DNA from: Mesoaciditoga lauensis cd-1655R = DSM 25116
GTDB lineage: Bacteria; Thermotogota; Thermotogae; Mesoaciditogales; Mesoaciditogaceae
Reading direction: 5' to 3'
NCBI RefSeq assembly: GCF_000745455.1
Contig: NZ_JQJI01000012.1
Coordinates: forward strand, 1 to 60,823
Length of the DNA: 60,823 nucleotides
A program made the translations under genes and the position numbers. Positions 6,731 through 18,620 of the stretch are shown here, piece after piece. Below the pieces are notes generated by a model. That model saw nothing but the letters and a program-made list of their open reading frames with translations. It was not told the origin of the DNA and ran no database searches. Positions within the stretch are counted from its first letter, which is position 1; each line of letters begins with the position of its first letter.

Positions 6731-6922
6731 TTTTCACCACGTGCGTGGGCTGTGGCGAAGGCGAGCCGAGCGAAAAGCTTGCTTTGAGCCGCTGCGAGAC
6801 AAGCCAATGGACGCGCTGTGTGGTGAAAGAATGAGAGGCGGAGTGTTCGCGAGCTGGATTTGCGAAAGATGTGTTTCTTTTTCTTGAGCTGATACGTGCG
6901 AGCGATGCACGGAGCGTACCTC
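6731..6922 (-). repeat. 192-bp structured repeat, copy A (inverted relative to 18428-18620)
   Basis: About 90% identical in inverted orientation to 18428-18620. By eye nearly all differences are transitions, which keep G-C/G-U pairing possible. Internal symmetry includes TTTCACCAC (6732-6740) against GTGGTGAAA about 90 bp later, the small palindrome AAAGCTTGCTTT, and a GTGC...GCAC hairpin near 6897-6911. Short open frames across it are not conserved as protein and are not annotated. It is noticeably more GC-rich than its surroundings. Possible roles are a REP/BIME-like element or a structured RNA. Confidence 0.85.
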
Positions 6923-7019
6923 AAATGTAACCTCTTCTTTCTATTTTTTAATTCATACCACATATAGTCATGGCAAAAAGTTGTACCTATATATGGAGGC
7001 CTCACATCCAGGGAAGGGA

Positions 7020-7103
7020 ATGGTCGCTTTGAATGAAACGATCGTTATTCTCTTCATCATTTTAATCTTCATCATTATCTTCATAGAAAACAAAGGGGGA
7101 TGA
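7020..7103 (+). CDS. 27-residue single-pass membrane peptide
   Basis: A short frame starts at ATG 7020 after a purine-rich AGGGAAGGG. It reads MVALNETIVILFIILIFIII followed by FIENKGG and a stop, 6 bp before the DUF1659 gene. About 18 consecutive residues are strongly hydrophobic, flanked by an acidic N-side and a charged C-side. In Firmicutes, DUF1659/DUF2922 gene pairs usually neighbour a tiny YvrJ-like membrane peptide, and this frame occupies an equivalent place, although I see no clear YvrJ motif. The RBS spacing is short, so expression is uncertain. Confidence 0.5.
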   Translation: MVALNETIVILFIILIFIIIFIENKGG

Positions 7104-7109
7104 TAACCA

Positions 7110-7352
7110 ATGGCAGCGGGAGATGCTGTAACTGAACTGGGGAAAGCTCAATCGATAGTTATTTATCTTAACACCGGAAGTACGGACGCAGACGGAAAGC
7201 CAATCATAGACAGGGTAACTGTGAACAACGTTAACCCATCGGCGCAAGAACAAGCCAAATACGATTTCGCTTACGCTTTGGCAGGCTTAACTTCCAAGAC
7301 TGTGGAAGGCATAGACGTTAGAACCACGACTGAACTCGGTCCAGTGGGCTGA
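7110..7352 (+). CDS. DUF1659-family small protein
   Basis: The 80-residue protein resembles DUF1659 proteins, small acidic beta-rich proteins of unknown role: AQSIVIYLNTGSTDADGKPI, then VNNVNPSAQEQAKYDFAYAL and ALAGLTSKTVEGIDVRTTTEL. The ribosome site is strong (AAAGGGGG). A DUF2922 gene follows 18 bp later, the invariable partner in other genomes. Function is unknown; the pair recurs with YvrJ-like peptides and phage-like genes in Firmicutes, and its presence here suggests an exchanged cassette. Confidence 0.8.
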   Translation: MAAGDAVTELGKAQSIVIYLNTGSTDADGKPIIDRVTVNNVNPSAQEQAKYDFAYALAGLTSKTVEGIDVRTTTELGPVG

Positions 7353-7370
7353 TAGGGGGGTGAATGATAT

Positions 7371-7613
7371 ATGGCAGTAACGACTACCAAATATTTGGCG
7401 ATGAAATTCATAGCTTCATCTGACGGCTCATCTAAGATAATAAGGCTTGCCGACCCAAGAGACGATTTAACGGATACGGACGTGCAAAACTTCATGAGCT
7501 CGGTTGTCTCATCCAACATGCTTTACACTTCAAAAGGCGCATTGTGCGACACCGTAGACAGTGCTAACATAATAGATAGGAACGACAACGAGCTGTTCAA
7601 CCTTGTTCAATGA
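7371..7613 (+). CDS. DUF2922-family small protein
   Basis: The 80-residue protein fits DUF2922: a strand-rich N-terminus, the central IIRLADPRDDLTDTDVQNFM (equivalent to DPKEDLT..EV) and the ending ANIIDRNDNELFNLV. No membrane segment or catalytic motif is visible. It follows the DUF1659 gene closely with its own strong ribosome site (GGGGGGTGA). A terminator-like hairpin just after it may make the first three genes more abundant than the last two. Function is unknown. Confidence 0.8.
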   Translation: MAVTTTKYLAMKFIASSDGSSKIIRLADPRDDLTDTDVQNFMSSVVSSNMLYTSKGALCDTVDSANIIDRNDNELFNLVQ

Positions 7614-7618
7614 TCAAC

Positions 7619-7638
7619 GGGGGCAAATGCCCCCTTTT
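7619..7638 (+). terminator. Intrinsic terminator or attenuator inside the small-gene cassette
   Basis: GGGGGC-AAAT-GCCCCC followed by TTTT lies 5 bp after the DUF2922 stop. It is a compact GC stem with a U-tract, so it should stop or attenuate transcription between DUF2922 and the next gene. Confidence 0.75.
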
Positions 7639-7665
7639 GTTTATCTTTAATGTGGAGGTGAATGA

Positions 7666-7923
7666 ATGGAAGAAGCTTTGAGCGTATTGAAAGACGTTAA
7701 ATTGGTCATAGACTCCGCGGTTGTGTTGGTTGAACACGATGGAGACGGAGCCAACAAAAAGAAAAAGGTATTGGAATTGGTGAACGAATTCATGAAGTCC
7801 AACAACATAACACCGCCCGTGCCCATTTCCATATTCAATTGGTTGGTTGGCGAAGCGGTTGACATAACGGTAAAATGGCTTAATGATAATTTGTGGAAAA
7901 AGGAAACCGGCAAAAAGAAATAA
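7666..7923 (+). CDS. Small charged protein, weakly similar to the soluble part of LL-H-type holins
   Basis: The 85-residue protein has an acidic N-terminus (MEEALSVLKDVKLVIDSAVV), a Lys cluster GANKKKKVLELVNEF and a C-terminal amphipathic helix ending WLNDNLWKKETGKKK. The arrangement GxxKKxxVLEWV...aliEAAV is reminiscent of the C-terminal region of phage holins of the LL-H superfamily, but no clear membrane segment is present; the assignment is tentative. The ribosome site is good (GGAGGTGA). Its 3' end overlaps the sigma-like gene by 41 bp. Confidence 0.6.
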   Translation: MEEALSVLKDVKLVIDSAVVLVEHDGDGANKKKKVLELVNEFMKSNNITPPVPISIFNWLVGEAVDITVKWLNDNLWKKETGKKK

Positions 7924-8230
7924 AGGAGTTGTTCCCCTCTTAAACGAAAAAGAATTCAAATCTCTTGAAAGGGTTGTATCGTCGTTAATGAAGAAATACA
8001 CTTATTCAGTTTACGAACATGAGCTGCAAGATTTAAAACAGACGATATGGTATTTGGTGATAATCTCAAAGGCGAAGTACGACCCAAAGCGAGGGATACC
8101 GTTTGAAGCGTGGGCATATTACTACGCGAAGATGAAATTGAGAGACCATTTCTGGAGGGGAACGAACTTTCCACAGACTAAAGGGGCATTTACCCTTTTG
8201 CATACAAAAGCGAAGAAATTATATGAATGA
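7883..8230 (+). CDS. Orphan sigma-70 region-2-like protein
   Basis: The 115-residue protein resembles sigma-70 region 2 without regions 3 or 4. The stretch LERVVSSLMKKY...YEHELQDLKQTIW corresponds to the core-binding 2.1/2.2 helices, and KYDPKRGIPFEAWAYYYAKMKLRDHFWR mirrors the F-DPxRGxxFxTYAxxxIRxxIxR promoter-melting helix. Split sigma factors exist (for example RsoA with SigO in Bacillus), so it may need a partner or act as a co-sigma or decoy. The start is uncertain: ATG 7883 overlaps the previous gene, and a later ATG at 7988 would cut the first helix. No other start follows the GGAG at 7923-7926. Confidence 0.7.
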   Translation: MIICGKRKPAKRNKGVVPLLNEKEFKSLERVVSSLMKKYTYSVYEHELQDLKQTIWYLVIISKAKYDPKRGIPFEAWAYYYAKMKLRDHFWRGTNFPQTKGAFTLLHTKAKKLYE

Positions 8231-8232
8231 TT

Positions 8233-8256
8233 GGCGCCAGAGATGGCGCCTTTTTT
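8233..8256 (+). terminator. Intrinsic terminator of the small-gene cassette
   Basis: GGCGCC-AGAGAT-GGCGCC followed by six T residues, starting 3 bp after the sigma-like gene stop. It separates the cassette from addB. Confidence 0.9.
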
Positions 8257-8335
8257 GTTGGAACGCGTTTCATTGTGGAAATTAGAGAAAAGCGAGATAT
8301 TCAAACGCATATGAAAAGATAAATCAAGATGTTAG

Positions 8336-18427: not shown

Positions 18428-18620
18428 GAGGTACGCTCCGTGCATCGCTCGCACATATCAGCTCAAGAAAAAGAGACGCATCTTTCGCAAATCTAGCTCG
18501 CGAACACTCCGCCTCTCATTCTTTCACCACGCAGCGTGTTCACTGGCTTGTCTCGCAACGGCTCAAAGCAAACTTTTCGCTCGGCTTGCCTTCGCCACAG
18601 TCCACGCACGTGGTGAAAAG
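18428..18620 (+). repeat. 192-bp structured repeat, copy B (inverted relative to 6731-6922)
   Basis: Inverted partner of copy A, about 90% identical along its full length and ending at homologous positions. Copy A and copy B enclose 7.0-18.3 kb. The stem CACCACG...CGTGGTG (about 18527 and 18607) is retained. The last bases run into a separate terminator. Confidence 0.85.

What the first reader, a model, noticed from the sequence alone, without database searches (positions are those of the whole stretch)
7020..8230. Five-gene cassette with an orphan sigma-70 region 2
A 27-aa membrane peptide, DUF1659, DUF2922, a weakly holin-LLH-like protein and a 115-aa sigma region-2-like protein are tightly packed, with an internal terminator after DUF2922 and a final terminator. 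DUF1659/DUF2922/YvrJ cassettes are widespread in Firmicutes and have no known function. A lone region 2 resembles RsoA of the split SigO-RsoA sigma of Bacillus. The set could be a self-contained regulatory or phage-derived membrane system, and is the best candidate in this window for an undescribed system.
Basis: partly seen in the sequence, partly recalled or inferred. Interest (0 to 1): 0.72.

Follow-up and report, generated by a model that had tools for sequence, protein, structure and literature searches.

The report
Sigma-region-2 gene inside holin/lysin-like cassette
A compact five-gene cluster in a heat-loving bacterium turns out to be one copy of a gene set conserved across its whole phylum and beyond, in which two unexplained proteins sit with a small membrane-type protein, half of a transcription factor and, in other species, a cell-wall-cutting enzyme, so it is probably a domesticated, self-regulated module that opens the cell envelope.

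Summary
The window (a Mesoaciditoga-type Thermotogota) carries a 24-aa TM peptide, DUF1659, DUF2922, a weakly LLH-holin-like protein and a sigma-70 region-2-only protein, with two terminators. The linkage is widespread: of 85 DUF2922 loci in 11 Thermotogota families, 82 have DUF1659 beside it on the same strand, 65 the holin-like gene, 44 the region-2 gene. The region-2-only form is the majority form and is under purifying selection (dN/dS about 0.1). Some Mesoaciditogaceae, including a second copy in this genome, have region 2 plus a region-4-like HTH. No lone region-4 partner was found, so an RsoA/SigO pair is not supported. DUF1659 and DUF2922 are homologous, with the same predicted fold. 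In other lineages the pair is followed by YvrJ and unrelated peptidoglycan hydrolases (GH73, GH108, M15, amidases), sometimes behind a ComK-like gene on plasmids; in Thermotoga a GH73 enzyme closes the cassette. Best reading: a self-regulated, chromosomal holin/lysin-type envelope module, with the DUF pair as abundant, attenuator-separated effectors or feedback regulators, as S. aureus SigS-SroAB suggests. Function is inferred, not shown, and the window copy has no lysin. The window unit also lies at several unrelated sites in sister genomes.

The parts
6981..6987 (+). promoter-like core TTGTACC, followed by TATATATGG; counterpart of a conserved element upstream of DUF1659 in other Mesoaciditogaceae cassettes
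   Evidence: conserved although the surrounding intergenic DNA is not
6996..7003 (.). short dyad GAGGCCTC just downstream of the promoter-like core; many other cassettes have longer perfect palindromes of different sequence at this place
   Evidence: 23 of 59 cassette leaders against 20 of 645 control leaders have a GC-rich perfect palindrome of 12 bp or more
7029..7103 (+).
   Evidence: frame kept in L033-L036
7110..7352 (+). DUF1659 protein, 80 aa, predicted beta-beta-alpha-beta
7371..7613 (+). DUF2922 protein, 80 aa, predicted beta-beta-alpha-beta, homologous to DUF1659
7619..7634 (+). internal intrinsic terminator (attenuator) 5 nt after the DUF2922 stop
   Evidence: present 4-6 nt after the stop in all Mesoaciditogaceae loci printed, with different but self-consistent stems
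7666..7923 (+). holin_LLH-like small protein, 85 aa, with a VExxGxGxxKKK-type motif
   Evidence: below Pfam cut-off; relatives in 65 of 85 loci
7883..8230 (+). sigma-70 region-2-only protein, 115 aa, overlapping the holin-like gene by 41 bp
8233..8250 (+). final intrinsic terminator; similarity to other copies ends just after its T run (about 8259)
6975..8259 (+). whole duplicated unit, 94-98% identical at unrelated sites in sister genomes

Best explanation
The cassette is a chromosomal holin/lysin-type envelope module under its own small sigma-like regulator. Shown: the set DUF1659 - DUF2922 - small membrane-type protein is an ancient conserved unit; in Thermotogota it usually ends with a region-2-only sigma-like gene; in Thermotoga, in other phyla and on Bacillota plasmids it includes a peptidoglycan hydrolase, of several unrelated families. 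Inferred: (1) the region-2 protein binds core RNA polymerase and, alone or with region 4 from another sigma, raises transcription of the cassette from the conserved promoter-like element; (2) the terminator after DUF2922 keeps the membrane protein and the regulator low while the DUF1659/DUF2922 pair is made in excess; (3) DUF1659 and DUF2922, two related beta-beta-alpha-beta proteins, form a heterodimer that restrains the system or feeds back on it (as SroA and SroB do on sigS in S. aureus), or is its cargo; (4) the holin-like protein and the TM peptide open or depolarise the inner membrane so that a wall hydrolase, encoded in cis in other lineages and presumably in trans here, can act.
For: Conserved order and strand in 11 families. 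Peptidoglycan hydrolase beside the pair in L126-L129 and L131-L133 (GH108, M15, amidase_2, GH73), in Thermotoga and a relative L135-L141 (GH73; full-length match to PDB 4QDN; T. maritima TM0633 is reported as an N-acetylglucosaminidase, PMC8943055; that 4QDN is TM0633 is my own knowledge), and on Geobacillus (M15) and Peribacillus (amidase_3) plasmids, with YvrJ. Lysin families swap while DUF1659/DUF2922 and the small membrane protein stay. YvrJ and the LLH-like protein take the same place in the order. Region-2-only protein above the Pfam cut-off and under purifying selection. Terminator-like hairpin after DUF2922 in 63 of 98 loci against 9 of 85 after DUF1659. Precedents: SigS directly activates sroAB and SroA raises sigS mRNA (PMC13192611); SigO-RsoA activates yvrJ (PMC8103513); sigma + holin + endolysin loci recur in clostridia (PMC9527704).
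Against: No lysin in the window cassette nor in most non-Thermotoga Thermotogota cassettes looked at. The LLH-like protein is below the Pfam cut-off and only moderately hydrophobic (family median KD19 1.69), so 'holin' is weak. Marinitoga- and Mesotoga-type loci lack the sigma-like gene. No significant structural relative of DUF1659 or DUF2922. The link to SroA is weak (12.6 bits, cut-off 80; 3 of 50 members, best E 0.034).
Confidence: 0.45

Rival explanations
1. Purely regulatory circuit of the SigS-SroAB kind: the sigma-like protein activates DUF1659/DUF2922, which feed back on its mRNA and on metabolism; the membrane protein and the lysins are only regulated passengers.
For: S. aureus SigS directly activates sroAB, and SroA and SroB act in opposite directions on sigS (PMC13192611). 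SroA is the named family that DUF1659 members match most often, though weakly. Regulators differ between lineages (sigma r2, ComK-like).
Against: The membrane-type gene is more constant than the regulator (65 against 44 of 85), and unrelated wall hydrolases recur at the same place. SroA membership is not established at the curated cut-off.
Confidence: 0.2
2. Split sigma factor of the RsoA/SigO type: the region-2 protein works only with a separate region-4 protein.
For: The region-2-only form is conserved and under selection; SigO-RsoA controls yvrJ in B. subtilis (PMC8103513).
Against: No region-4-only protein in this genome with PF04545; relatives fuse region 2 to an HTH. The C65 paralogue could lend its HTH, but cassettes of Thermotoga-type genomes show no such paralogue.
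Confidence: 0.12
3. A small mobile cassette (satellite-like element) whose spread, not a cellular function, explains its distribution.
For: Window unit at four or more unrelated sites in sister genomes with abrupt ends; repeated copies in Mesotoga- and Marinitoga-type genomes; plasmid copies next to an integrase.
Against: The copy beside tdh/kbl is syntenic across genera; no transposase or target duplication seen; copies in one MAG differ by dS 0.13-0.22 with almost no protein change, so dispersal is old and the proteins are kept by selection. No empty site was demonstrated.
Confidence: 0.1
4. Decaying prophage lysis remnant without function.
For: LLH-like and YvrJ small proteins and lysins recall phage lysis cassettes; one apparently decaying copy exists (G016 C45, L172).
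Against: No relative of the DUF2922 or DUF1659 queries in 50,697 phage records; purifying selection; DUF2922 in 82 of 103 Thermotogota genomes.
Confidence: 0.04

Closest known systems
S. aureus SigS-sroAB circuit (SroA family NF049869)
   Same: A small sigma factor functionally tied to a pair of small proteins; the SroA model aligns over nearly its whole length with DUF1659, weakly
   Different: Full sigma factor there; no holin-like gene or lysin described; the sequence match is far below the curated cut-off
B. subtilis SigO-RsoA (YvrI-YvrHa) with target yvrJ
   Same: Region-2-only protein; YvrJ is the membrane protein that stands in place of the LLH-like one in non-Thermotogota cassettes
   Different: No region-4 partner found here; DUF1659/DUF2922 are not part of the SigO regulon as described in PMC8103513
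Clostridial sigma-holin-endolysin loci (UviA/UviB with Bcn5; TcdR/TcdE) and type 10 secretion
   Same: Small sigma, small holin-type protein and wall hydrolase in one locus; a works-like comparison
   Different: The sigma there has regions 2 and 4; holin families differ; the constant partners here are DUF1659/DUF2922, not a toxin or bacteriocin
DUF1659-DUF2922-YvrJ cassettes of Bacillota plasmids (e.g. Geobacillus kaustophilus pHTA426)
   Same: Same core pair and order, small membrane protein, then a peptidoglycan hydrolase
   Different: Preceded by a ComK-family gene instead of followed by a sigma region-2 gene; YvrJ instead of the LLH-like protein

Membership tests
Sigma-70 family (region 2 domain) | PF04542 above gathering score | tested here: met
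   29.1-29.8 bits against 24; three short relatives 24.0-27.5, two more distant ones below
Complete ECF-type sigma factor | Regions 2 and 4 in one protein | tested here: not met
   Window protein ends after region 2 at a terminator; the C65 paralogue has both (PF04545 24.1 bits in the genome search)
RsoA of the SigO-RsoA split sigma | Region-2-only protein | tested here: met
RsoA of the SigO-RsoA split sigma | Separate region-4-only partner in the genome | tested here: not met
   PF04545 search of the own genome, weak candidates read; PF08281 was not searched
Holin_LLH (PF09682) | Score above curated cut-off | tested here: not met
   13.5 bits against 24.9; TIGR01673 14.3 against 34.75; PHROG holin 6918 E=0.0025, 7.9e-5 for the C65 copy
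Holin_LLH (PF09682) | Membrane-spanning segment; pore or depolarising activity | tested here: inconclusive
   Hydropathy borderline; activity cannot be tested here
DUF1659 / DUF2922 | Pfam gathering score | tested here: met
   61.1 and 60.7 bits
SroA/SroB pair | NF049869 above curated cut-off; SroB homologous to DUF2922 | tested here: inconclusive
   12.6 bits against 80; no SroB sequence at hand
Holin/endolysin (type 10-like) module | Peptidoglycan hydrolase in the same gene cluster | tested here: not met
   None in the window cassette; met in Thermotoga, seven non-Thermotogota loci and four plasmids
SigS-like autoregulation | The sigma transcribes its own cassette | not testable with these tools
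   Only a conserved promoter-like element is visible

The most novel reading that the evidence does not exclude
DUF1659/DUF2922 define a previously undescribed, widespread bacterial envelope-opening system (secretion, release or controlled lysis) whose constant core is a homologous heterodimer, whose membrane protein (YvrJ or LLH-like) and wall hydrolase are exchangeable, and which in Thermotogota is driven by a sigma factor reduced to region 2 that works without a region-4 partner.
Probability: 0.3. Interest if true: 0.85.

Novelty: new variant of a known kind. Interest (0 to 1): 0.62.

Why it matters
DUF1659, DUF2922 and YvrJ are annotated in many Bacillota and Thermotogota genomes with no function. 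Tying them to exchangeable peptidoglycan hydrolases, a small membrane-type protein and a dedicated regulator gives them a testable function, may put the S. aureus SigS targets SroA/SroB in a new light, and supplies a natural series of sigma proteins with and without the region-4-like part, including thermostable ones from Thermotoga, to ask whether region 2 alone can direct transcription.

Tried and rejected
Single-protein tblastn of the window DUF2922 against plasmids and of the window DUF1659 against phages found nothing; a Bacillota-like DUF2922 query was needed to reach plasmids. Foldseek of both models gave no hit below E 0.001. PADLOC: no credible defence match. Searching 160 genomes for NF049869 found nothing, and the controls did not ring. 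The RNA fold of the window leader is no better than shuffles and the only Rfam hits in the window are two tRNAs, so a structured leader RNA in the window copy is not supported. A link to type IV pilin genes (next to two dispersed copies) was tested over all loci and dropped: 2 of 1640 ORFs. The promoter-core pattern used on the family found only cassette sites in five genomes and missed both copies in G000 because it was too strict. Empty insertion sites were looked for and not demonstrated. The primary SigO-RsoA and sroAB papers are not held; for sroAB I rely on the later preprint.

Full report
What is there. DUF1659 and DUF2922 are strong Pfam members; region 2 of sigma-70 is above its curated cut-off; the fourth gene resembles LLH holins only below cut-off (PHROG holin 6918 at E 0.0025). 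Two intrinsic terminators are present. The membrane peptide probably starts at TTG 7029, because the diverged copy in L036 has ATG at that codon and is out of frame upstream of it.

Where it is. The window is one whole contig of a 2.17-Mb Thermotogota genome; the closest named relatives in the collections are Mesoaciditoga MAGs. A second cassette lies on contig C65 beside threonine dehydrogenase/kbl genes. That neighbourhood is kept in other genera of the family, so that cassette is vertically inherited. In the C65 copy the last gene encodes 160 aa with region 2 and a C-terminal HTH that scores on Sigma70_r4 and HTH_28. The window copy ends directly after region 2.

The short form is not a broken gene. 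Between dispersed copies the region-2-only gene has dN/dS of about 0.00-0.10, and 0.10-0.14 against the diverged G016 copy. Across the phylum the short form is the rule: several families (unnamed handles f7-f10; judging from neighbours and the T. maritima control they include Thermotoga, and the other generic names used here are my inference) have proteins of about 110-145 aa with region 2, mostly a conserved tail of the type P-x-C-x-x-x-P-F-T-x-L, and no HTH.

Conserved linkage. DUF2922 occurs in 82 of 103 Thermotogota genomes and DUF1659 in 61 by Pfam search. In 85 DUF2922 loci from 11 families, a DUF1659 or DUF1659-like gene is next to it on the same strand in 82, the holin-like gene in 65 and the region-2 gene in 44, often with nearly constant spacing; 10 loci are cut short downstream by contig ends. 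In the Petrotoga-like family the holin-like gene often stands in front. Marinitoga- and Mesotoga-like loci lack the region-2 gene.

Lysin connection. Outside the phylum, 9 loci with the pair were read; 7 have, directly downstream, a YvrJ protein (four checked with Pfam: 50-59 bits, cut-off 29.5) and a peptidoglycan hydrolase: GH108, M15 (three), amidase_2, GH73 (two). Of the other two, one is cut 0.2 kb after the pair (L130) and one has neither gene (L125). In Thermotoga and a relative a GH73 enzyme follows the pair, the holin-like gene and usually the region-2 gene in 7 of 7 loci; one matches PDB 4QDN over its whole length, and T. maritima TM0633 is reported as an N-acetylglucosaminidase in PMC8943055. 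Plasmids of Geobacillus and Peribacillus carry ComK-family gene - DUF1659 - DUF2922 - YvrJ - M15 or amidase_3 - integrase. Nothing was found in 50,697 phage records with the queries used. That unrelated hydrolases take the same place is, in my view, the strongest hint of function. It is circumstantial, and the window copy has no such gene.

The DUF pair. Profile-profile comparison gives 95.8% probability (E 6.5e-9) that DUF1659 and DUF2922 are homologous. AlphaFold2 predicts the same beta-beta-alpha-beta order for both (mean pLDDT 82 and 84). No solved or viral structure matches significantly. A terminator-like hairpin follows DUF2922 in 63 of 98 loci, against 9 of 85 after DUF1659; in all Mesoaciditogaceae loci printed it lies 4-6 nt after the stop, with stems of different but self-consistent sequence. 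The pair is therefore probably made in excess over the membrane protein and the regulator in these genomes; Thermotoga-type loci lack the hairpin. The named curated family that most DUF1659 members match is SroA, the S. aureus sigS mRNA-stabilising protein, but far below its cut-off. SigS directly activates sroAB, and SroA and SroB have opposite effects on sigS (PMC13192611). That SroA and SroB are themselves DUF1659 and DUF2922 proteins is my recollection and was not tested.

Control region. Upstream of DUF1659, family-specific promoter-like cores recur: TTGTACC followed by an A+T stretch in Mesoaciditogaceae, CGTATACTATATNNTGG in f8 and part of f10 and f11, CGTAGATATA in f9. A perfect GC-rich palindrome of 12 bp or more lies close downstream in 23 of 59 leaders, against 20 of 645 control leaders, some of which share the same element. 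The palindrome sequence changes between clades while symmetry is kept; the window has only an 8-bp version. The loci are related, so the p-value overstates the evidence. In one complete genome (G063) 14 intergenic repeats of about 205 bp carry the same core and palindromes.

Dispersal. The window unit (about 6975-8259) is 94-98% identical to copies in sister genomes that lie beside different genes: addB (window and G012), a chemoreceptor gene (G012, L035, G016), a prepilin gene (G012) and a transporter-like gene (G016); similarity ends sharply just before TTGTACC in the chemoreceptor-site copies, and within about 2 nt of position 8259 at the other end. Synonymous divergence of 0.09-0.22 between copies in one MAG says the spread is not recent. 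MAG binning could mix strains, and no empty site or target duplication was shown, so I make no claim on a transposition mechanism.

Interpretation. What it works like: sigma-holin-endolysin loci of clostridia and holin-dependent secretion (PMC9527704), combined with the feedback pair of SigS (PMC13192611). What it is a member of: the DUF1659/DUF2922 cassettes; not an RsoA/SigO pair by the test made here, and not a curated LLH holin. The shown part is the conserved architecture, the selection on the region-2-only gene and the lysin linkage in other lineages; the membrane-opening, core-binding and feedback steps are inferred.

Noticed in passing
window 6731-6922; copies at window 18428-18619 (-), G000 C7:4032-4212, C1:33008-33110; L033 2157-2351: A roughly 190-bp dispersed repeat, 89-94% identical, lies just upstream of the cassette and elsewhere in the genome; nature unknown.
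   Followed up: partly
L204, L212-L216, L219-L226 (genome G063): Fourteen dispersed intergenic repeats of about 205 bp carry the cassette-type promoter core CGTATACTATATAATGG and two palindromes, in two sequence variants; possibly a multi-copy small RNA or regulated repeat family.
   Followed up: partly
L201, L210 (genome G056): Same promoter core followed by GACTGCAGTC at two sites away from any DUF1659 gene; possible further targets of the regulator.
   Followed up: no
L003 5434-6120: The C65 cassette has an insert of nearly 700 bp with internal repeats between DUF2922 and the holin-like gene.
   Followed up: no
L046-L053 (Mesotoga-like genomes): DUF1659/DUF2922 loci occur in up to four related, mosaic multi-kilobase copies per genome.
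   Followed up: no
L240, L241, L243: ComK-family genes sit directly upstream of DUF1659 on Geobacillus and Peribacillus plasmids, hinting at a link to competence.
   Followed up: partly
L057 1168-3406 against L010: A 2.2-kb stretch with the cassette is 97% identical between genomes assigned to two different families (G041, G078): recent transfer or contamination.
   Followed up: no
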